Source: Pseudofrankia saprophytica
Lineage (GTDB): Bacteria; Actinomycetota; Actinomycetes; Frankiales; Frankiaceae
DNA: 64,000 nt
Reading direction: 5' to 3'
NCBI RefSeq assembly: GCF_000235425.2
Contig: NZ_KI912266.1
Span: 3,229,671-3,293,670 of the forward strand
Shown: positions 43,599 to 55,956 of the stretch, one piece after another
Numbering within the stretch: position 1 is the stretch's first letter
Layout of the letters: each line of letters opens with the position of its first letter
The notes under the pieces: model-generated
Databases searched by the model: none
The model's input: only the letters and a program-made list of their open reading frames with translations
What the model was told of the DNA's origin: nothing
Position numbers and translations under genes: made by a program

Positions 43599-43721
43599 TC
43601 AGATGGTGAGGGCCAGCTCGGTGAAGGCTGCGGCGAGCCGGCGGTGGGGTTCGGTGTCGGTGGCGAGTTCGTAGTGGCCGCGGCGAACGTTCTGGACGAA
43701 GGCGTGCCCGGAGGCGATGAC
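43599..43721 (-). pseudogene. IS6-family transposase, C-terminal fragment
   Basis: The last 40 codons (VIASGHAFVQNVRRGHYELA, TDTEPHRRLAAAFTELALTI) match the end of the IS6 transposases at 10679 and 55183. The terminal repeat lies at 43543. The rest of the element is missing beyond 43721. Confidence 0.85.
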
Positions 43722-44040
43722 CTGGGGAACCGGGCCCGCGTGCGCGTCCATCGTCGCGAGGCGACGGACCGCAGCTACGACGACGTCGCCAGCATCGATG
43801 GCCGCCTCGGCGAAGGTGAGGCCAAACCGCTGTGCGCGGCAGGACCGGGCACGTCCAAATTCGCTGCGCCTCCAAGACGCTGTGCTTGCGGCGGCGGACC
43901 GGGTGGGGAGCCCGGACGCCGCGAGCGTGATCTTCGGCTGCTCGACGAGTGGGACGCAGACGGGGCCGAGGCGGGCAACACCACAGGTCGGGCCAGGTAG
44001 CCTCCTGGTCTGCCCGGTTGGCGCGGGGAAGCGCCGGCGG
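43722..44040. other. Unassigned sequence between IS6 fragment and lipoprotein gene
   Basis: The minus strand is open here and reads through phrases such as VPLVEQPKITLAASGLPTRS and FGLTFAEAAIDAGDVVVAA, which look protein-like, but no family is recognised and frames change. Probably remnants of one or more genes. The lipoprotein promoter should lie at its right end. Confidence 0.4.
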
Positions 44041-44643
44041 ATGACGGTATCGGGGGAGCACGTGGATAGTCCCGCAGTCAGTCGCGCCCGTCTCGTCGCG
44101 TGCGCGGGTCCCTTGGCGGCTGTGATCATCGGGATCCTCGGGATTTCCGGGTGCGGCGGTTCCGCCGACGGCGGCGCGTCGTCGACGGCAGCGGGGACGA
44201 CACCGCGGACCGCGGCGGCCACACCGGCCACGGCCGGGGCTCCGGCCACCGCATCCCCGGCGTCGGCGCCGGCGGAACCGTCTTTGAATCCCTGCGGTGT
44301 CGTCTCAGCGCGGGAGGCTGAGCGGCTCGCGGGAACCGCGCTACTCAGTCCGGTCGCGGAGGACGAGACCTGCGTCTATGCCGCGACGCCCGACGGACCG
44401 ACGGCTCAGGTCGAGGTCCGCGTCGGTCAGACCGCGGTCGACTACTACACGGCCGATCGCGGGACCGGCCACACGATGCAGCCGCTCACCGGTATCGGCG
44501 ACGAGGCCTACATCTGGGAGTACGCCGTCTTCGTCGCCAAGGGCGACTCCCGTGTGTCGATCAATCTCGTCCGTGGCAACGACCCGGCGGACAACCGGGG
44601 CCCCCTGGAGAACCTGGCTCGCACCGTCGCCGATCGGATTTGA
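44041..44643 (+). CDS. DUF3558-like lipoprotein
   Basis: A 200-aa secreted lipoprotein: signal segment LVACAGPLAAVIIGILGISG with lipobox GISGC, a Thr/Ala/Pro-rich linker, then a globular domain that begins NPCGVVSAREAERLAG and contains DETCVYAATPDGPTAQVEVR, the two-cysteine pattern of DUF3558-type actinobacterial lipoproteins. ATG 44041 and GTG 44062 are both possible; GTG has GGGGGAG just upstream. It should sit on the outer face of the membrane. Function of the family is not established. Flanked by gene remnants on both sides. Confidence 0.82.
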   Translation: MTVSGEHVDSPAVSRARLVACAGPLAAVIIGILGISGCGGSADGGASSTAAGTTPRTAAATPATAGAPATASPASAPAEPSLNPCGVVSAREAERLAGTALLSPVAEDETCVYAATPDGPTAQVEVRVGQTAVDYYTADRGTGHTMQPLTGIGDEAYIWEYAVFVAKGDSRVSINLVRGNDPADNRGPLENLARTVADRI

Positions 44644-45285: not shown

Positions 45286-45435
45286 GGTCTGAAACGTCTG
45301 CGCTCCGCACAGGTCGTCGGCGCTGGGCACGCGTTCGTGCAGAACCTCCGCCGCGGCCACTACGAACTGGGCATCGACGTCGAACCACGTCAGCGGCCCG
45401 CGGCCGCCTTCACCGAACTCACCACGGTCATCTGA
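45286..45435 (+). pseudogene. IS6-family transposase, C-terminal fragment
   Basis: Fifty codons (GLKRLRSAQVVGAGHAFVQN, LRRGHYELGIDVEPRQRPAA, AFTELTTVI and stop) match the end of the IS6 transposases here. The rest is missing. Confidence 0.85.
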
Positions 45436-45806
45436 CCGCCACCGCAACCAGAGGCCGTCATGCCTCGCATCGGCCCATGCAGCGCCATCTCGGCAGCAGC
45501 AGGTCAGAACGCAGGACCGACCGTATGGGACCACGCCCTCTCGAAGCGGCAATGCGTCCAAAGGGTGCCAATCGCCACGATCAGTAGCGACGGCATCCGA
45601 CCACGAATAGTGTCAATGACAGGCGTACCCGACCGGGTGCTGGCTTTGAGAGATTTGAGTGGCCCCACCTTCCGCCCGCGGCCAGAACATGGCAACGAGC
45701 GCTGAGGGCGTCGGCCGGCAATGGTTCCTGTCCCAGGTCAAAGGGTCAGTACAGCGTGGCGACAGTCGGCTTGACCTTGCCGCCCTGAAGCGGCGGTGTG
45801 TCTAGT
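45436..45806. other. Region without a recognisable gene
   Basis: Between the IS6 fragment and the IS1380 element. Short open frames only; no family similarity. Confidence 0.45.
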
Positions 45807-46121
45807 AGGGCTTTGTTAGGTGACCATGAGGTTCCGTTTCGTTGCCGCGCTGGTAGTGGTTCGTAGGGTTGGTGGCAGGTGCGGATGACCTTCGAGTCCT
45901 GAGCTGCTGCTCGTCCGGCGCCCTTGGCTTAGCCCGGATCTTTCATCGGTTGGTTGGGTGTGATCGCGGGTTGTCCTCTCACCCTTGTTGATGTTGAGTT
46001 TTGTGGGTCAGGTCGGGTGTGGCCGTGGTCGGGCGCCTCGCTGTCGCGCGAGGTGGGCGCCTGGTCCACGTCCGGGTGGTGTTGCTCCTGGTAGGTAGGG
46101 GTGGGAGGTCGGTGGCCCGGG

Positions 46122-46907
46122 TTATCCGGGGCTGGGTATGGCGTGCAGGGTGCTGATCGCCTGGGTGGTGAGCGCTGCCCAGGGGTGGTGCGTGGCCAGG
46201 TGCAGGACGACGGTGCGGGCGTGGCGGGCGAGCCGGCCGGCGAGCCAGAAGATCCGGTGGCGCAGCCGTTTCGGTTCCCATCGCCGTGCCGGCCCGTCGG
46301 GCAGGGCGAGCATCTGGGTCCAGGCGACGAGGTCGAGGGCGAGGGTGAGGGTGACCAGGGCGCACCAGACCTGGTTCTGGGCGAGGTCGTGCAGAGGCAG
46401 GTTGGTCAGGCCGGTGTCTTTGGCGCCGCGGATCCGGTCCTCGCAGCGGGCGCGGCGGCGGTGGCGCAGCTCGAGGTCGGCGAGCTGGCCGCGGGGCGTG
46501 TTCGTCGCGAACGCGGTGATCCGGTTGCCGTCGACGTCGGTGATCCGCAGCTGCGCGCCGGGATGCGGTCGTTCCTTGCGGACGATGACCTGCATCCCCG
46601 GTGGCCAGCCGGACAGGTCCATCAGGCCGGTCAGCTCGGCGACGAACGCGCCGGGTCTCGGCTGCCGGTCGGCGTCGTAGGCCGGCGTCCACGCTGTCTT
46701 CGGTAGCCGGGCGATCAGGACGGCGGCGTCGTCGGGGAGGGTGAACCCGACCGAGTAGCCCACCCGGCGCTGGGATAGCCAGTCCAGGAAGACGTGGGTG
46801 CCACCGGCTGAGTCCGCGCGGATGAGGACCTTGCGCGATCGGCGCAGATCTCGGGGCAGGTGGGCGAGCGCGTCGGTGGCGACCGTGATGTGGTCGGTCG
46901 CCGTGTT
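46122..46907 (-). CDS. IS1380 transposase, exon 3
   Basis: The third and longest exon, 262 codons with the stop, begins NTATDHITVATDALAHLPRD. It supplies the second catalytic Asp (KVLIRADSAGGTHVFLDWL), the Glu (RARCEDRIRGAKDTGL) and the C-terminal helical region of the IS1380 transposase. The open frame continues upstream to 46985, but those codons belong to intron domains V and VI. The 5' border is set by the intron end ...CTACCCGAC (46908) and by family alignment: GNAGS from exon 2 joins NTATDHITV exactly in phase. Confidence 0.9.
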   Translation of the reverse strand, partial: NTATDHITVATDALAHLPRDLRRSRKVLIRADSAGGTHVFLDWLSQRRVGYSVGFTLPDDAAVLIARLPKTAWTPAYDADRQPRPGAFVAELTGLMDLSGWPPGMQVIVRKERPHPGAQLRITDVDGNRITAFATNTPRGQLADLELRHRRRARCEDRIRGAKDTGLTNLPLHDLAQNQVWCALVTLTLALDLVAWTQMLALPDGPARRWEPKRLRHRIFWLAGRLARHARTVVLHLATHHPWAALTTQAISTLHAIPSPG

Positions 46908-46948
46908 GTCGGGTAGCCGGAGCGCATTGCTGCGCTCCGGCCCCCTCA

Positions 46949-46983
46949 GAACCGTGCGTGCCAGCTTTCCCGGCACACGGCTC
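46949..46983 (-). ncRNA. Group II intron B domain V
   Basis: GAGCCGTGTGCCGGGAAAGC, followed by TGGCACGCACGGTTC, folds into the conserved 34-35-nt domain V hairpin with a GAAA tetraloop and the AGC catalytic triad near its base. It begins at the stop codon of the reverse transcriptase gene. Confidence 0.88.
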
Positions 46984-48838
46984 AAGCAGGCCCGATGGCT
47001 TCGCGGGCCGGAAGTCGTGCCGTCTTGCGCGTCGTGGCGTCACGCCGGCGAGCGCAGAAAGGGTGCATCAGGTAGCGGGTGTTGTCGTCCGCCGGGTGGT
47101 TCGGCGCGGTGATCGCTGTTCGGCGGATCGCCTTTCGTAGCGCGGTGAGCCACTGTTCCCAGTCCTGTGGGCTCTGCGGTTCCTGGCCTGTGTGCAATAT
47201 CAGGTCACCGCAGGCCGGGCAGCGCCCGTTCTGTTTGCGGAGCAGGCGTGTCAGGAATGGTCCCAGCGGTGGTTTGCCGCGTCGCCGCCGGATCGCCCAG
47301 TACTCGGCCAGGGTCGGATCGTCGGGTGACGACCGGCCCCTGACCAGGGTATGGCGGACGATGGGGGTCCAGGAGAACTTGACCAGGTAGCGGCCGCTGT
47401 CGCGGTCACCGAACACCCAGCGATCTCCCCTGGCGGGGTGGAAGGCCCGAAAATATCGGGTTGCCACCCACCGTTTCCCCTTGTTTGGGTGTGTCCGTCG
47501 CGCCCACCGGTAGGTGAGCATCCACACGTAGTGGTCCAAGGCGGAGAAGATCTCCTTGGACACGGCCGTGCGGTAGTAGGCGGCCCAGCCCCGGATCGCG
47601 GGGTTGAGCCTGGTGATGACCGCCTCGGCGTTGGCCCCGTGCAGGGCTTGGACCTCGGCGGCGAGCCTGCGGCGGATGCTGTGCACCGCTACCTTGCTCG
47701 GTTTGGTCAGCAGCTTGCCGTTGCGGTAACGGCGGATGTTGAACCCGAGGAAGTCGAAACCGTCTTCGAGGCGGACGATGTGTGTCTTGTCCTCGTTGAA
47801 GGCCAGACCCCTGGGCGCAAGCCACCGCTGGAGGCTTTCCTTGACCTGCTGCGCCTGTTCGGCGCTGTGGCAAAGAGCCACCAGGTCGTCGGCATACCTC
47901 ACCACGAGCGGACTTCTAGCCGTCACGCCCCCGGCGTGCTTGACATGCCCGGGGTGGTAACGGACACCGGCTGCCGTTTCCAGACCGTGCAGAGCCACAT
48001 TTAGCAACAACGGGCTGATCACGCCGCCTTGGGGAACCCCCTCCCCGGTCGGGGTGAACCTTTCCCGCTCGACCACACCGGCCTTCAGCCACCCGGCGAT
48101 CCTGCCCCTGGCGGGGAAAGTACCCAGCAGCTTCAGGAGATGGCCGTGATCGATGCGGTCGAACGCCGCGGCCAGGTCGGCGTCGAGGATCCACCGGCGG
48201 TGCGGGTTGCGCCCGCTCACAGTGGTGAAGATCGCCTCGATCGCGTCATGGCAGCCGCGGCCCGGACGAAACCCGTAGGACTTCGGCTCGAACCGGGCTT
48301 CCCACTCGGGTTCCAGGGCGTTGGCCGTCAGGGCTTGAAGCGCCCTGTCGGCGATCACCGGAATACCGAGCGGGCGGCGTTTCCCGTTGGCTTTGGGGAT
48401 GAACACCCGCCGGACAGGCAGAGGCGACCACCGGGCCGACCGTCGCTGCACCCAGCCGGCCAGCTCGGCCTTCTGGGACACCGACAGCGCGGCCTTCCCG
48501 TCGACGCCCGCTGTCTGGCGGCCGGCGTTAAGCTCCGCCACCCGGCGCACGCTGACCACAGCGTTCGCCCTGGAGCGGAGCATCAACTTCTGGAGGCTAC
48601 GGACCCGTTTAAGATCCCCAGCCCGCGATGCCGTGAAGATGCGTTGCCGTAGCCGCCGTACGTCGTCCTCGGCCTGCCGCCAGTCGATCGACAGCCAGTC
48701 CGGGCACGCGCCCTCCGGTCCGTTCACCACAGCATCGGCCGCCGGACGGGCCAAGGCCTGTTCCAGCATGTCCAAGGTCATGGCGTCCAACTTGCCCTTC
48801 GGTTCAGGTGCTCCTGGCTTCGGTCTCCACAAGCCCAC
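46982..48838 (-). CDS. ltrA: Group II intron B reverse transcriptase/maturase with HNH-like end
   Basis: A 618-aa intron-encoded protein. Reverse transcriptase blocks are visible in order: FIPKANGKRRPLGIPVIADR, YGFRPGRGCHDAIEAIFTTV, WILDADLAAAFDRIDH, GVPQGGVISPLLLNVALHGL and the active-site YADDL, then DFLGFNIRRY. The maturase X domain follows (LNPAIRGWAAYYRTAVSKEI). The C-terminus has CPACGDLILH and HPFCARRRDA, a Cys/His-rich HNH-type endonuclease region, which would let the intron cut target DNA. GTG 48838 is the longest start; ATG 48781 is an alternative. The protein needs its own intron RNA for splicing and mobility. Confidence 0.93.
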   Translation of the reverse strand: MGLWRPKPGAPEPKGKLDAMTLDMLEQALARPAADAVVNGPEGACPDWLSIDWRQAEDDVRRLRQRIFTASRAGDLKRVRSLQKLMLRSRANAVVSVRRVAELNAGRQTAGVDGKAALSVSQKAELAGWVQRRSARWSPLPVRRVFIPKANGKRRPLGIPVIADRALQALTANALEPEWEARFEPKSYGFRPGRGCHDAIEAIFTTVSGRNPHRRWILDADLAAAFDRIDHGHLLKLLGTFPARGRIAGWLKAGVVERERFTPTGEGVPQGGVISPLLLNVALHGLETAAGVRYHPGHVKHAGGVTARSPLVVRYADDLVALCHSAEQAQQVKESLQRWLAPRGLAFNEDKTHIVRLEDGFDFLGFNIRRYRNGKLLTKPSKVAVHSIRRRLAAEVQALHGANAEAVITRLNPAIRGWAAYYRTAVSKEIFSALDHYVWMLTYRWARRTHPNKGKRWVATRYFRAFHPARGDRWVFGDRDSGRYLVKFSWTPIVRHTLVRGRSSPDDPTLAEYWAIRRRRGKPPLGPFLTRLLRKQNGRCPACGDLILHTGQEPQSPQDWEQWLTALRKAIRRTAITAPNHPADDNTRYLMHPFCARRRDATTRKTARLPAREAIGPA

Positions 48839-49454
48839 CTGGCCACGTCAGCGCCCTTTCGGGCCGGGCACCTGCCCGTATCCGGCCGGTTATCCGGAAC
48901 CGGCGACGGAGGTGGCCGCCACAACGTCCCGGTTTCCCGTCGCCTTTCGGCGCACCGGCATTCGCTTCTTGGCCATCCTGTTCCCGCCAGGGGATCGACC
49001 TTCCTCACGGTCAGCCCACCGCGCAGGAAACCTGCACGGACCCCGTCGGGGTTTCCACGTTCCACACGAGCGAGACACAACCGGGGTGGGCGCCCTCTAA
49101 ACCCCGGGGACGGTGGTGTCCACCCGGCCGACGGTTCAGCTGTCCGACCGGCACCCGCCGTTTCGCAACGGCCAGCCCCTAAACCCCGCTGGAACCTTCC
49201 GCCTGCGGGGCTCAAACGTGACGAGGCATCATCAAGGGTTCACTCACGTTCACCCGTCCGGTTTTCCCCTTGCCTGTGGCCGGCGGACGGAACGCCAACC
49301 CTTGGGCTTCTTCCCCGAGCTTCGCACCCCGCCGTTACCAGCGACGCACGTCAGGGTGGGGACAGGCCTTGGACACTGGCCCGAGCTACACCGTCGACAT
49401 CAGCCGAACCCCCAATCGGTGCAACCACTCAACTCGTGCGACCTCGTGTCGCAC

Positions 49455-49547
49455 CGACCCGGCGTTGCCCGCCCGCAGCAGTACCGCCGCCGGCTCCCCG
49501 GTGCCGTCCTGGCCGTGGTCGACGAACGCCCACAGCGGATGGAACCC
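49455..49547 (-). CDS. IS1380 transposase, exon 2 (31 codons)
   Basis: Exactly 93 nt between the two introns, encoding GFHPLWAFVDHGQDGTGEPA and AVLLRAGNAGS. This is the segment missing between exon 1 (ending FKKGF) and exon 3 (starting NTATDH) when compared with uninterrupted IS1380 transposases. Both borders are in phase 0. No other gene call would find this exon. Confidence 0.88.
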
Positions 49548-49610
49548 GTCGAGTAGGCCGTGGGCGCGGTGCCGGGATTACTCCCGGCCCGTTTCCCACG
49601 GCCTCTCTCC

Positions 49611-49647
49611 GCACCCGGCGTGCGCCTTTCGACGCACCGGGCGCTCC
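49611..49647 (-). ncRNA. Group II intron A domain V
   Basis: GGAGCGCCCGGTGCGTCGAA, followed by AGGCGCACGCCGGGTGC, folds as a domain V hairpin with a CGAAAG loop and an AGC near the base. It lies 14 bases after the reverse transcriptase stop codon. Confidence 0.8.
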
Positions 49648-49660
49648 ATGGTCCCTGCCG

Positions 49661-51130
49661 TTATGCGGGTTGTGGGGCCCAGGGGGTGGGGATCCGAGTG
49701 CCGCGGTAGCGGTACCGGGTGACCGGTATCTTGGCGGTCCGCTTCCACTCGGTGGTACCGGCCCAGTAGTTCAACCACCTCCCGGTGGGGGTGGTATATC
49801 GGGCGCGGAACTCCTTCCATCTCCAGCGGTGCCGGGTCATCAGCAGCCGAGCGAGACGCCACCAGACGAAGCTGTCGATGGCACTGAACACGTGCTTCGC
49901 CACGGCGTGCTTGAAGTAGCCGGCCCACCCGTGCGTGACCCTGTTGATCCAGGTCAGCAGGTCCTCCAGGCCCTGATGTGATTCCCTGGGAGTCATGGCC
50001 CTGATCTTCGCCTTCACCGCCCGGATCGCCCGGTCGGCTACGAAGGTGTAGACGTACCACTTGTCTGTCCCCCTCTTGCGGCGCCGCTGGATGCGGAACC
50101 CGAGGAAGTCGAAACCCCGATCCAGATGCGTGACCTGAGTCTTCGCCTCGGACAGGCGCAGCCCCATCGTGGTCAACACCCGGACTACTTCTTCGCGCAG
50201 CGTCTGGGCGTCGTGCTCATTCCCGTTGACCAGGACGACGAAGTCGTCCGCGTAGCGGACGAGCCGCCACCTCGGGAGCCCTTTCTTGCGCCGGCCCGCG
50301 CGTTTTACCTGGGTCGACTGCGCCCCACCCGGCTGCCACGGCCCGTGCAGATGCTCGTCGAGCACCGACAGGGCAATGTTCGCGAGCAGCGGTGAAAGAA
50401 TACCGCCTTGGGGAACGCCGGTCCGGGTGTTCTGGGGCTCGCCGAGTTCGGTGAGGATCCCGGCTTTCAGGAACGCCTTGACCAGCGCCAGCACACGCTT
50501 GTCCTTGATCCGTTTCCTTACCCGGTCCATCAGCACGCCATGGTTGATCTCGTCGAAACACGCGTGGATGTCCGCGTCCAGCACCCAGCGGTAGCCCTTG
50601 GTGCCGAACATGTGGATCTCGGCTATCGCGTCCTGCGCCCGCCGACCCGGCCTGAAGCCATACGATACCGGCAGAAAGTCGGTGTCGAAGATCGGTTCCA
50701 GGACCAGTTTCAGCGCGGCCTGGACGACCCTGTCAGCGACTGTGGGAATCCCGAGTCGCCGTATTTTCCCCGCCCCTCCCGGTTTGGGAATCACGCGCTC
50801 TCTGACCGGCAGCGGGCGGAAGGTGCCCGCCTTCAGCTGGGAACGCAGGTCGTCCAGGAACCCGGAGACGCCCAGCTGCCGGTCGACGTCGGCGACCGTG
50901 AGGCCGTCGACACCAGCAGTCCGGGCGCCCCGGTTACCAGCGACCCGCCGATACGCCACGAGCAGCGTCGCCGGGTCACACACGAAGTTGTACAGGTCAT
51001 CGAACCGGCGGCCAGGATCAGCCGCCGCCCAACGGTGAAGTTTGGCCTGCATCCCCGATACCCGCGCAGCCGCCACCGTGAGGTCGTGTCCGCGTGGAGC
51101 GCCGCCATCCAACGACGCGTCTTCCGGCAT
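49661..51130 (-). CDS. ltrA: Group II intron A reverse transcriptase/maturase
   Basis: A 489-aa intron-encoded protein from ATG 51130 (the frame is open to 51478, but that part is ribozyme sequence; GGAAGGA lies before the ATG). Blocks: VIPKPGGAGKIRRLGIPTVA, YGFRPGRRAQDAIAEIHMFG, WVLDADIHACFDEINHGVLM, GVPQGGILSPLLANIALSVL, active-site YADDF and DFLGFRIQRRRKRG. The maturase X/group II maturase domain ends in RWKEFRARYTTPTGRWLN. There is no HNH endonuclease, so its mobility should use nicked or replicating DNA. It belongs to a different subgroup from the intron B protein. Confidence 0.93.
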   Translation of the reverse strand: MPEDASLDGGAPRGHDLTVAAARVSGMQAKLHRWAAADPGRRFDDLYNFVCDPATLLVAYRRVAGNRGARTAGVDGLTVADVDRQLGVSGFLDDLRSQLKAGTFRPLPVRERVIPKPGGAGKIRRLGIPTVADRVVQAALKLVLEPIFDTDFLPVSYGFRPGRRAQDAIAEIHMFGTKGYRWVLDADIHACFDEINHGVLMDRVRKRIKDKRVLALVKAFLKAGILTELGEPQNTRTGVPQGGILSPLLANIALSVLDEHLHGPWQPGGAQSTQVKRAGRRKKGLPRWRLVRYADDFVVLVNGNEHDAQTLREEVVRVLTTMGLRLSEAKTQVTHLDRGFDFLGFRIQRRRKRGTDKWYVYTFVADRAIRAVKAKIRAMTPRESHQGLEDLLTWINRVTHGWAGYFKHAVAKHVFSAIDSFVWWRLARLLMTRHRWRWKEFRARYTTPTGRWLNYWAGTTEWKRTAKIPVTRYRYRGTRIPTPWAPQPA

Positions 51131-51722
51131 TGCAGCATCCTTCCCTTCTCGAAACCACTGCCGCCCTTCCCCATGTGCCGGGCTTTCCCCGGCTCGGAGT
51201 ACTACGGCGGCTCCGCCCCACCTCGCCGGTTCGACGGTCGGTGCGCCTATCCCGACAGCCCGCTGGCTGCGAGCTTGCCCGGGAACCCGGACGAGGCGGT
51301 TCCCACGTTCACCATGTTTCGTTTGTCGGAGGAGGAGCCCGACTGTGTCCCAGCGGCATCGCCATGGGTACGCCGCAGACTTTCCCCGTGGCCTCCGGTT
51401 CGGCGGTTTCAGACCTCCCCGAAGTTCCCTCACACCCGGGTGGATGCTCGGTGCGCACCGCGACCGGCCCTTATCCACCAGATTTGAGCCGGCTCATTGT
51501 TTTAAAGGACGTAGACGTCGGTTCCTCGCGTACTCCTCTCCAACTCGCTCGCCAGGCCCGCACCATCTGGCAGTGCTGACACGTCCTGGCTTTGTCAGGG
51601 CTGCTCCCGCCCTTCCCGGCACCACCCGGATCAGGCTGCCCTCAGCTACAATCAACCTGCTGCGACAGGCTAAAAGCGAAGGTCTTCCACCCCCACTCGA
51701 AACACAGCGCCTCGTGGCGCAC

Positions 51723-52238
51723 GAAGCCCTTCTTGAAGGTCGGCGCCGCGGCCTCCTTTTCCGAATGCGCGGTGACCAGCGTCGCGTCGAGGTCCACGAC
51801 CAGCGGATCCTGCGCGGAGACCTGACGGTCGGGAGCGTGTTCACCAGCCATCGACCACACCCGGCCCCGCGCCACGGCGCGCGCCCTACCGACCGCGACG
51901 AGCACCCGGTCGACGTCACCGGCCAGCCGGTCGACCGTCCGTGACACCGTCGGGTCCGACGCCACCCGGCCGAAGATCTCCGGCTCGGCGCGCAGCAGGG
52001 CGATGTCCGCGAGGCAGTCCCCGCCCAGCGCCAACATCACGGCCAGATCCAGCAACACCTTCGCCGGATCATGGACCGCCAGCGGCGAACGCCACGGCCC
52101 GAGCGCTACTGACAACAGCCGACCCAGCCCGCTGACACGGACCGTCTCGGTCAACAACACCGCCCCAGCCACCGACACGACGCCGCGACCAGCCACATCG
52201 ACACGGACGGATGGATAGACACCGGTACTCTGCACCAT
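51723..52238 (-). CDS. IS1380 transposase, exon 1
   Basis: 172 codons from the start MVQSTGVYPSVRVDVAGRGV to the splice border after PTFKKGF. It holds the N-terminal helical region (VHDPAKVLLDLAVMLALGGD, DPTVSRTVDRLAGDVD) and the first catalytic Asp (LVVDLDATLVTAHSEKE). The open frame continues into intron A, which would give a false C-terminus. Joined to exons 2 and 3, it makes a 464-aa protein, a usual IS1380 length. Confidence 0.9.
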
Positions 52239-52358
52239 GAAGGTGCTCCTTGGTTCGGACAGGATTCAGGCCCTCAGCAAGCCCGATCCTCCCAGCTCAG
52301 GAGCACTTTCCTTTTCCCGACACACCCACCACCCGATCACCACCATGAAAGCCCTGGG

Positions 52359-53027
52359 TTAGGCGTCGAGGGTGCGCAGCCGGCCGAGGACCCGTTGCAG
52401 GATGGCCAGGTTGGTGCGGTCCGGAGGGGGCTGGTCGGGGTCTGATGGGGCTGACGGGGTGCGGCGCGGGAGGTGTGCCTCGTCGGCGGGGGTGTCGCCG
52501 GCAGCAGCCTGACGGCTTGGCTGGGGCTGGGGCAGGCTGGCCCAGACGACCTTGCCGTTCGGGTCGCCGTGTGCGTAGACGGGGTAGCTGCCCCAGCCGG
52601 CGGCGAGGGCGTTGACGAGGCGCAGACCCCCGCTGGTGCCGGCGGCCGGGTCGCCACGGCGGAATTCTGGCCGGCCCGCTGCCCGGTCCCAGACCTCGAC
52701 GACGAGGCGATGACGGTCGTACGTCAGCTGGAGAGCGACGGACGGTTGCCCGTTCCCACCGGCGCTTCGTCTCGGCAGCAGCTCGGACGCACGGATGGCG
52801 TTCGTGACCAGCTCCGACGCGAGGAGGGTCGCTTCGTTCTGCAACTCGTCGAGGCCCCAGCCGCGCAGCTGGGCTCGCACGTGGTCGCGGGCGACGCTGG
52901 CCGAACGCCCATCCAGCGGATAGCGAAAGACACTGTGCACCGGGCCGCGCGCGCCACCCGGCCCGGCCGGGGGATTCGGGTCGGACCGGGATGGTGATGT
53001 GACGACGCGGCGGATGGTCACCAGCAT
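52359..53027 (-). CDS. RsbW-like ATP-binding regulator (HATPase fold)
   Basis: About 222 residues with a single GHKL ATPase domain: the N-box LLASELVTNAIRASELLP, then VEVWDRAAGRPE and the G-box GTSGGLRLVNALAAGWGSY. Such proteins are serine kinase/anti-sigma or anti-anti-sigma partners widespread in actinobacteria. The C-terminal 60 residues are Pro/Ala-rich. ATG 53027 or GTG 53021 (GGAGAG six bases before it) are likelier starts than the longest one at 53087. The stop lies four bases from the IS1380 end, so the original downstream neighbour is unknown. An ECF sigma factor gene is 1.2 kb away. Confidence 0.87.
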   Translation of the reverse strand: MLVTIRRVVTSPSRSDPNPPAGPGGARGPVHSVFRYPLDGRSASVARDHVRAQLRGWGLDELQNEATLLASELVTNAIRASELLPRRSAGGNGQPSVALQLTYDRHRLVVEVWDRAAGRPEFRRGDPAAGTSGGLRLVNALAAGWGSYPVYAHGDPNGKVVWASLPQPQPSRQAAAGDTPADEAHLPRRTPSAPSDPDQPPPDRTNLAILQRVLGRLRTLDA

Positions 53028-55127: not shown

Positions 55128-55956
55128 GGGGCTGTTGCGTTGAGCCGGCCCGAGGCACGGCAGGGCCAAGTTGGCGACCTGATCAGATAGCCTGCGCGAG
55201 CTCGGCGAACGCTGTCGCGAGCCGGAGATGGGGCTCGGCGTCGATGCCGAGTTCGTAGTGTCCGCGGCGAAGGTTCTGGACGAAGGCGTGCCTGGAGCCA
55301 ATCACCTGGGCCGAGTGCAGTCGTTTCAGTCCTCGCATCGGCCGCGGCCGGGCTTTCAACCGGCCGTGGTCGGCCTCGATCGGGTTGTTCGCGTAGCGGG
55401 CGTCCACGTGGTGAGCAGCAGGCAGTTGCTCGTCGAGGACGCGTGGGTAGGCCGGGGCCCGGTCGGTGGTCACCTCCACCGGGCGACGACCATGCGACAA
55501 CGTGGCGGTGAAGAACCGACGCGCCGCGGCCAGGTCCCGATTCTCGGAGGCGAGTACGTCGATGACCTGCCCGTACTGGTCGATCGCTCGGTACAGGTAG
55601 CGCCACCGGCCCGCGATCTTGACATATGTCTCGTCCGTGAACCACCTGTCGCCCGGGCTGTGGCGACAGGGCCGGGCGGCGTCGATCAGCAGCGGGGTGA
55701 ACCGGCGGACCCACCTGTACACGGTCACGTGATCAACGTCGACGCCGCGTTCGGCGAGCAACTCCTCGATGTCCCGGTACGACAACGCGAACCGCAGATA
55801 CCAGCGAACTCCCAGAACGATCACCTCCGGTGGGAACCGGAAGCCGGCGAACTCCGAGGCCGAGACCGGGACCGGCGGATGAGGACGGCGGTGCGCCATC
55901 ATCCGATCATGCCTGGCCGCCGGGACGGACCACAGCGTCCACCGACGCAACAGTGC
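55128..55956 (-). mobile_element. IS6-family insertion sequence, complete copy
   Basis: Bounded by GGGGCTGTTGCGTTGAGCC at 55128 and ACGCAACAGTGC near 55945-55956. It holds one full transposase gene. On its right flank lies a cut-off sigma-factor-like N-terminus, on its left the promoter region of an intact sigma gene, so the insertion or a later deletion joined unrelated sequences. Confidence 0.85.
55183..55902 (-). CDS. IS6-family transposase
   Basis: About 239 residues from the tandem ATGs at 55902 and 55899 (the frame is open to 55950). The helix-turn-helix ELLAERGVDVDHVTVYRWV and DDE residues in FTDETYVKIAGRW, VEVTTDRAPAYPRVLDE and NNPIEADHGRLKARPRPMR are complete, with C-terminus HAFVQNLRRGHYELGIDAE. 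It differs from the 10679 copy at many positions, so the two are different members of the family. Confidence 0.93.
   Translation of the reverse strand: MMAHRRPHPPVPVSASEFAGFRFPPEVIVLGVRWYLRFALSYRDIEELLAERGVDVDHVTVYRWVRRFTPLLIDAARPCRHSPGDRWFTDETYVKIAGRWRYLYRAIDQYGQVIDVLASENRDLAAARRFFTATLSHGRRPVEVTTDRAPAYPRVLDEQLPAAHHVDARYANNPIEADHGRLKARPRPMRGLKRLHSAQVIGSRHAFVQNLRRGHYELGIDAEPHLRLATAFAELAQAI

What the first reader, a model, noticed from the sequence alone, without database searches (positions are those of the whole stretch)
49455..49547. A 31-codon micro-exon between two group II introns
The bases encode GFHPLWAFVDHGQDGTGEPA and eleven more residues, exactly the part missing from the two flanking exons. 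A bacterial exon of 93 nt bounded by two group II introns is rare, and gene finders will not call it. Order of insertion could be worked out, because intron A's target site may have lain next to intron B's or the reverse.
Basis: partly seen in the sequence, partly recalled or inferred. Interest (0 to 1): 0.6.

Follow-up and report, generated by a model that had tools for sequence, protein, structure and literature searches.

The report
Transposase gene split by two introns
A bacterial jumping-gene enzyme is cut into three pieces by two other jumping elements (self-splicing group II introns), leaving a 93-base middle piece; the reading is sound, and it is an uncommon example of a known kind rather than something new.

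Summary
On the minus strand, window 52238..46122 is one IS1380-family transposase gene in three exons (172, 31, 261 codons), separated by two full-length group II introns of 2175 nt (B) and 2547 nt (A), each with its own reverse transcriptase/maturase. Exon 2 is exactly 49547..49455. Uninterrupted relatives align straight across both junctions (12 of 12 spanning rows). The host IS is complete. EBS1/IBS1 and EBS2/IBS2 pairings exist for both introns, with one EBS1 mismatch each; covariation with relatives locates the loops, while plain complementarity does not discriminate. Order of insertion cannot be read from adjacent targets: the sites are 93 nt apart and both intact in relatives. Other evidence suggests an order. 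Intron A's lineage occupies this same IS1380 site in other families, once with exons 1 and 2 uninterrupted. Intron B has a near-identical copy in this genome (4 differences in 2175 nt) at a site in another gene that is also occupied in two congeneric genomes. Likeliest history: resident A, then recent ectopic arrival of B. Splicing itself is inferred. New member of a known kind; moderate interest.

The parts
45933..52358 (-). Complete IS1380-type insertion sequence, 6426 bp with both introns, 1704 bp without them; ends CCCAGGGCTTTCA and TGAAAGATCCGGG
   Evidence: Ends fixed by alignment with the flanks of five other copies; lengths
45929..45932 (.). 4-bp target duplication, one side (TTAG on +, CTAA in the sense of the gene)
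52359..52362 (.). 4-bp target duplication, other side
51723..52238 (-). Exon 1 of the transposase, 172 codons, ends ...AAGAAGGGCTTC
49548..51722 (-). Intron B, 2175 nt, GTGCGCC...CTACTCGAC
   Evidence: Domain V-VI RF00029 49646-49548; second copy in the genome with 3 substitutions and one 1-nt deletion
49661..51478 (-). Intron B-encoded reverse transcriptase/maturase, longest frame 605 aa, YADD motif; no endonuclease domain scored in Pfam
   Evidence: closest solved structure GsI-IIC RT
51405..51410 (-). EBS1 of intron B (intron nt 313-318, GAAACC), pairs 5 of 6 with IBS1 51728..51723
51493..51496 (-). EBS2 core of intron B (nt 227-230, UGAG), pairs 4 of 4 (one G-U) with exon 1 positions -15 to -12
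   Evidence: helix register; pairing
49548..49646 (-). Domains V-VI of intron B
49455..49547 (-). Exon 2, the 93-nt micro-exon, 31 codons
46908..49454 (-). Intron A, 2547 nt, GTGCGAC...CTACCCGAC
   Evidence: RF00029 46985-46908 and RF02012 49383-49296; single full copy in the genome
46982..48838 (-). Intron A-encoded reverse transcriptase/maturase, longest frame 618 aa, YADD motif; C-terminal cysteine/histidine cluster looks by eye like an endonuclease domain but no Pfam model scored it; stop codon lies in domain V
   Evidence: closest solved structure 6me0
49132..49138 (-). EBS1 of intron A (nt 317-323, UGAACCG), pairs 6 of 7 with IBS1 49461..49455
   Evidence: region located; exact register in this sequence assigned by hand, pairing
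49215..49218 (-). EBS2 core of intron A (nt 237-240, CGUU), pairs 4 of 4 with exon 2 positions -12 to -9
46908..46985 (-). Domains V-VI of intron A
46122..46907 (-). Exon 3, 261 codons and stop

Best explanation
A complete IS1380-type element carries a transposase gene interrupted by two different mobile group II introns in sense orientation and phase 0. Shown by sequence: exact boundaries, open spliced frame, open intron-encoded proteins, domain V-VI, EBS/IBS pairings, complete IS ends. Inferred: each intron, helped by its own maturase, splices from the transcript, joining codons 172/173 and 203/204, so that active transposase needs both splicing events. The two outer exons hold the catalytic residues (assignment recalled) and exon 2 links them. 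Intron A belongs to a lineage that homes to the conserved GNAGS|NTA.DH codons of IS1380 transposases. Intron B most likely arrived later by retrotransposition from a copy whose usual home is the ...FLFGF site of a DUF2637-like gene, landing in the transposase because the sequence just upstream (..GGCTTC against ..GGGTTC) resembles that home.
For: Junctions: 12 of 12 spanning homolog rows continuous, 18 exon-2-only matches. Family: NF033539 and PF13701. Introns: Rfam, RT and maturase domains. Pairing: in a first set the best EBS1 column is nt 315 for group A, 0.77 of 6-nt pairs formed in 8 sequences (0 of 200 flank shuffles reach it), and nt 313 for group B, 0.717, 20 of 22 rows scored at that column (0 of 200); the enlarged sets, which overlap the first, keep the same columns: A 17 rows (16 scored) 0.708, B 38 rows (34 scored) 0.760, 0 of 100 shuffles each. 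Complete IS with duplication. A at the same site in a Streptomyces plasmid (77% over 2577 nt) and in G545 (77% over 2576 nt), where exons 1 and 2 are uninterrupted; these three form one clade over the first 480 nt, support 98/99. B: copy at G000:C1:3016964-3019137; its closest relatives over the first 250 nt (95% and 94%) follow the same FLFGF codons in two genomes of the genus.
Against: No transcript data; splicing is not shown. One EBS1 mismatch (position -4) in each intron, and EBS2 pairings of only 4 bp. In group A the window row itself scores 0 of 6 at the best alignment column; its pairing appears two nucleotides further on and was assigned by hand. Single-sequence folds do not leave EBS1 free (1 of 7 nt unpaired in A, 3 of 6 in B; EBS2 4 of 4 and 3 of 4). 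EBS2 columns were not tested by shuffling. The shuffles do not correct for relatedness. The interrupted IS is single-copy, so nothing shows that it has moved since. The order A then B is circumstantial: intron A could have homed in later, and among the loci fetched from the window's own family no copy with A alone at this site was seen.
Confidence: 0.82

Rival explanations
1. The same anatomy, but intron B came first and intron A homed in afterwards.
For: The targets are independent, so either order is physically possible. A homes to this site in several lineages and could enter a copy that already held B. The closest IS relatives in the family hold no A.
Against: B has a donor-like copy in the genome that differs by 4 changes in 2175 nt, so it is young; A has no close copy in the genome, its same-site relatives are at 77%, and an A-only copy exists while no B-only copy at this site was found in 393 genomes (only two candidates were scored per genome) or 72,556 plasmid records.
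Confidence: 0.22
2. The gene is a dead hulk: the introns no longer splice and the transposase is not made.
For: Most bacterial group II intron copies are truncated or inactivated (review PMC4424553, passages read). Pairing at -4 is lost in both introns. The IS is single-copy.
Against: Both introns are full length with open reverse transcriptase frames and domain V-VI above the Rfam cut-off, all three exons are open, and the IS ends and duplication are intact. In group B the -4 position is paired in only 22 of 34 rows, the lowest of positions -1 to -6, so a mismatch there is common.
Confidence: 0.12
3. The two introns also splice in a hybrid way, 5' site of B to 3' site of A, removing exon 2 in frame and giving a shorter transposase.
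For: Both introns are in phase 0, exon 2 is 93 nt (divisible by 3), and intron ends are alike. Alternative splicing of a bacterial group II intron is reported in Clostridium tetani (PMC3919590, search listing with abstract start only).
Against: No direct evidence. The two intron-encoded proteins fall closest to different solved structures, and EBS1 and domain V would have to act across introns. Exon 2 lies inside the DDE domain hit, so the product would probably be inactive.
Confidence: 0.05

Closest known systems
Trichodesmium erythraeum genes with several group II introns (ribonucleotide reductase gene, Liu, Yang and Meng 2003)
   Same: [quoted passage not shown] the 2003 paper itself not read).
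   Different: There a housekeeping gene of a cyanobacterium; here an insertion-sequence transposase, by its nearest relatives of an actinomycete. Exon sizes there were not looked up.
Thermosynechococcus elongatus group II introns (Mohr et al. 2010, PMC2882425, passages read)
   Same: [quoted passage not shown] intron A's protein is closest to 6me0, which I recall as the T. elongatus 4h maturase.
   Different: The passages describe insertion into an insertion sequence or into another intron (twintron); here two introns sit side by side in one gene with a 93-nt exon between.
Group II twintrons (Trichodesmium Tery_4732, PMC4649490, passages read)
   Same: Two group II introns must both leave one transcript before the protein can be read.
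   Different: Nested there, tandem here; no order of splicing is forced by the anatomy here.
Intron B relative in an IS1380 transposase on Rhodococcus jostii RHA1 plasmid pRHL2
   Same: Same intron lineage (72.5% over 2209 nt) in the same transposase family, protein alignment continuous across the junction.
   Different: Different site (query residues 317/318) and only one intron.

Membership tests
Group II intron (both A and B) | Domain V-VI catalytic hairpins at the 3' end | tested here: met
   RF00029 59.4 bits (A) and 49.1 bits (B), cut-off 40
Group II intron (both A and B) | 5' GUGYG-type start and 3' AY end at precise exon junctions | tested here: met
   GTGCG start and ...AC end in both; junctions confirmed by uninterrupted homologs. 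The consensus is recalled.
Group II intron (both A and B) | Intron-encoded reverse transcriptase with maturase domain | tested here: met
   RVT_1 and GIIM in both; TIGR04416 327.4 and 375.3 bits, cut-off 300
Group II intron (both A and B) | EBS1/IBS1 and EBS2/IBS2 pairing with the 5' exon | tested here: met
   Covariation over relatives; one EBS1 mismatch at -4 in each window intron; EBS2 not shuffle-tested
Group II intron (both A and B) | Self-splicing or maturase-assisted splicing | not testable with these tools
   Needs RNA
IS1380 family transposase/insertion sequence | Transposase over the family's curated cut-off | tested here: met
   NF033539 320 bits, cut-off 180, for the joined exons
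IS1380 family transposase/insertion sequence | Terminal inverted repeats and short target duplication | tested here: met
   Ends and CTAA/CTAA duplication
Twintron (nested introns) | One intron inside the other | tested here: not met
   The introns are separated by 93 nt of coding exon
Bacterial class C intron (inserts after terminators) | Insertion downstream of a transcription terminator hairpin | tested here: not met
   Both introns sit inside coding sequence in phase 0; no terminator scan was run. Intron B's protein is nonetheless closest to GsI-IIC RT among solved structures; class was not determined by a tree

The most novel reading that the evidence does not exclude
The pair works as a two-step splicing switch on an insertion sequence: transposase is made only when both maturases have acted, and hybrid splicing from intron B's 5' site to intron A's 3' site can skip the 93-nt exon in frame, giving a bacterial case of exon skipping.
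Probability: 0.05. Interest if true: 0.75.

Novelty: new member of a known kind. Interest (0 to 1): 0.4.

Why it matters
It is a clean snapshot of how a gene gains a second intron: an intron faithful to one site in a mobile element, then, most likely, a second intron arriving from elsewhere in the genome with an almost identical copy still present. It offers a short natural exon for testing whether neighbouring group II introns splice independently, interfere, or skip the exon between them, which bears on how multi-intron genes could have begun. It also warns annotators: an ORF caller would show the transposase as two broken pieces plus two reverse transcriptases.

Tried and rejected
Twintron reading: rejected, the exon between is coding and aligns with uninterrupted homologs. 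Order from adjacent target sites: rejected, sites are independent. Plain complementarity as a test of EBS/IBS: rejected as uninformative, since 6-nt matches lie at three other places in each intron's first 600 nt. Single-sequence RNA folds of domain I: z-scores about -2, and they do not leave EBS1 free; not used as support.

Other close pairs of domain V-VI hits in the family: in G023:C14 the first intron is followed by about 1 kb of other transposase frames, the start of the second intron was not located and the stretch holds masked bases; G027:C222, G032:C8, G033:C148 and G026:C139 were fetched and only mapped by similarity. None was followed to a micro-exon, so further cases in the family are not excluded.

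Plasmid hits that cover both introns in one stretch (H1-H4) are not the same arrangement: an A-type intron lies inside a B-type intron in L126 and L131 and probably L129, and a B-type start lies inside an A-type intron in L132. Of 1619 plasmid records I read the 7 regions H1-H7, and six more regions from the hits. The phage collection gave one record, matching transposase only. Genome-contig scan: 8 stretches, 0 with any Rfam hit at E 0.01 or less; the collection may leave out the window's own genome, so the pattern was checked only on the window. In some searches only two candidates were scored per genome, eight, so absence there is weak. For G303 the A-type intron end at the same exon 3 start sits at a contig end (24 nt of exon), weak support. 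In the Streptomyces plasmid the sequence upstream of the exon 2 tail is rearranged, so absence of B cannot be judged there.

Literature: no listed title or abstract start describes two group II introns in an IS1380 transposase or a bacterial micro-exon between group II introns; three of these lists were capped (15 of 73, 12 of 39, 10 of 56), and the library holds open-licence papers only. Passages of PMC8919778, PMC4853749 and PMC12702839 gave nothing on this arrangement.

Full report
What was checked. The finding says that 49455-49547 is a 31-codon exon between two group II introns. On the minus strand the order is exon 1 (52238..51723), intron B (51722..49548, 2175 nt), exon 2 (49547..49455), intron A (49454..46908, 2547 nt), exon 3 (46907..46122). 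All joins are in phase 0 and the joined frame is 464 codons. It is an IS1380-family transposase: NF033539 320 bits against a cut-off of 180, PF13701 E 3.8e-77.

Junctions. Homologs were sought in the 35 genomes held for the family; 24 of 35, the window's included, have a match at E 1e-20 or better. Of 27 nucleotide alignments of the coding sequence to the loci fetched from there, 12 span both sites, and all 12 run on without a gap at either junction; two of the 12 rows are overlapping loci of one copy, so 11 copies. Some rows have small gaps inside exon 2 or upstream, none at a junction. A query of exon 2 with 40 nt of each intron (173 nt) found 22 places: the window, 18 in other genomes whose alignment stays within 39-133 (exon 2 is 41-133), and 3 that match almost only intron.

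The host element is complete. Flanks of five other copies and the window show common ends; in the sense of the gene the element begins with CCCAGGGCTTTCA at 52358 and ends with TGAAAGATCCGGG at 45933, with CTAA outside on both sides. The IS is 6426 bp with introns and 1704 bp without. In the genome the transposase occurs once, in the three pieces described, plus one short 68%-identical fragment.

The introns. Rfam finds domain V-VI in both. Both encode a reverse transcriptase with maturase domain over the NCBIfam cut-off and a YADD motif. Intron A's protein is closest to 6me0 (E 6.6e-106), intron B's to the GsI-IIC reverse transcriptase (E 9.9e-61). Pfam scored no endonuclease domain in either. 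The class of each intron was not settled by a tree.

EBS and IBS. Complementarity alone is a weak test: in the first 600 nt of each intron three 6-nt stretches match the flank perfectly with G-U pairs allowed. I therefore aligned relatives with known 5' flanks and asked which column pairs best with each sequence's own flank. With 8 A-type and 22 B-type sequences the best columns are intron nt 315 (0.77 paired) and 313 (0.717, 20 of 22 rows scored there), and 0 of 200 shuffles of flanks among sequences reach either value. With enlarged sets of 17 and 38 sequences, which overlap the first (23 hits dropped as duplicates, short or with N; hits that miss the intron start not counted), the same columns win, 0.708 (16 scored) and 0.760 (34 scored), 0 of 100 shuffles each. 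EBS2 appears at about nt 237 (A) and 225 (B), not shuffle-tested. In the window, intron B's EBS1 GAAACC pairs 5 of 6 with GGCTTC, mismatch at -4, and equally 5 of 6 with the GGGTTC of its other copy. Intron A's EBS1 UGAACCG pairs 6 of 7 with CGGGTCG, again a mismatch at -4; in the alignment this row is displaced by two nucleotides and scores 0 of 6 at the best column, so its register was assigned by hand. EBS2 cores pair 4 of 4 in both. The two A-type introns at the same site elsewhere share GAACCG and CGTTT in these places. In group B position -4 is paired in 22 of 34 rows, the lowest of -1 to -6, so a mismatch there is ordinary. Against this, single-sequence folds leave 1 of 7 EBS1 nucleotides unpaired in A and 3 of 6 in B.

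Where intron B came from. A second copy lies at G000:C1:3016964-3019137, with 3 substitutions and one 1-nt deletion. It follows ...FLFGF in a frame that, read by hand across the empty site, continues downstream and resembles DUF2637 weakly (PF10935 E 0.012, 16 bits, cut-off 22.8). Over the first 250 nt the nearest relatives of intron B after this copy are in two genomes of the same genus (95% and 94%), and both follow the same FLFGF codons of what looks like the same gene; they match only for the first 345 and 259 nt. So that gene is the likely home and the transposase the ectopic site. No other B intron was found at the transposase site: among the matches of the exon 1-intron B query in 393 genomes (two candidates scored per genome) only the window's own covers both parts; one other hit reaches 33 nt upstream but has no transposase homology; of 92 plasmid records with a match none covers 80% of the junction query.

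Where intron A belongs. The same site is used by A-type introns in Streptomyces sp. NBC_01562 plasmid unnamed5 (77% over 2577 nt; the only one of 1439 matching plasmid records that covers 80% of the junction query) and in G545, a genome of another family with a distant IS1380-like transposase (34.5% and 38.2% identical pieces), where exon 1 and exon 2 are continuous and only intron A is present. G303 shows the same 3' junction at a contig end. Window, plasmid and G545 introns form one clade (98/99) among 17 A-type introns over the first 480 nt. This fits a lineage specialised for one conserved site in an insertion sequence, a habit described for Thermosynechococcus introns (PMC2882425, passages read).

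Order. The two target regions are separate and intact in uninterrupted copies, so adjacency says nothing. A as a site-faithful resident and B as a newcomer with a near-identical copy favours A first; I put this at roughly three to one.

Function. Inferred: both introns splice and the transposase depends on both. The acidic residues usual for this fold (assignment recalled: VVDLDATLV in exon 1, IRADSAGG and CEDR in exon 3; positions) lie on both sides, so no exon alone could give an active enzyme. In-frame skipping of exon 2 is possible on paper and untested.

Novelty. Bacterial genes with several group II introns are known in Trichodesmium (PMC4649490, passages and a reference title). A genome-contig scan for this type of intron end, 41-101 nt, and this type of intron start gave 8 stretches, none with an Rfam match, so the arrangement is at least uncommon for these introns. 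I file it as a new member of a known kind.

Noticed in passing
L037 (1412-2070) and L111 (3892-4550), G032:C152; also L040, G032:C81: Three intron 5' ends head to tail: a B-type start (87 nt), an A-type start (405 nt), then another B-type start; a second contig repeats the A/B join at the same A position. Looks like introns nested in introns.
   Followed up: partly
L079, L081, L086, L087, L099 (IS1380 homologs in the family): Five of 27 transposase alignments begin or end between coding nt 510 and 516, next to the intron B site (516/517), beside sequence not recognised as a group II intron (L086 at a contig end). Possible insertion hot spot for other elements.
   Followed up: no
L146 3502-5674 (Rhodococcus jostii RHA1 plasmid pRHL2): B-type intron in an IS1380 transposase at query residues 317/318 with a continuous protein alignment; the gene table names only the 5' part as IS1380 transposase.
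   Followed up: partly
L047 (G006:C515): Another B-type intron sits in what looks like the same DUF2637-like gene, at a different position (...LLLIGWAEVG).
   Followed up: no
L126, L129, L131, L132 (Streptosporangium and Streptomyces plasmids): A-type introns inside B-type introns (L126, L131, probably L129), a B-type start inside an A-type intron (L132), and a B-type start 42 nt into another B-type start (L131): probably further nested introns.
   Followed up: partly
window 43599-44249 (-), about 45315-45436 (+), 55183-55950 (-): Three places share a similar transposase-like C-terminus (..HAFVQN..RRGHYEL..), apparently degraded or intact copies of another IS around the element; read by eye.
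   Followed up: no
G000:C1:2998995-2999108 (L004, L008): Short fragment (68% protein identity, residues 130-168) of an IS1380 transposase that ends close to the intron B site.
   Followed up: no
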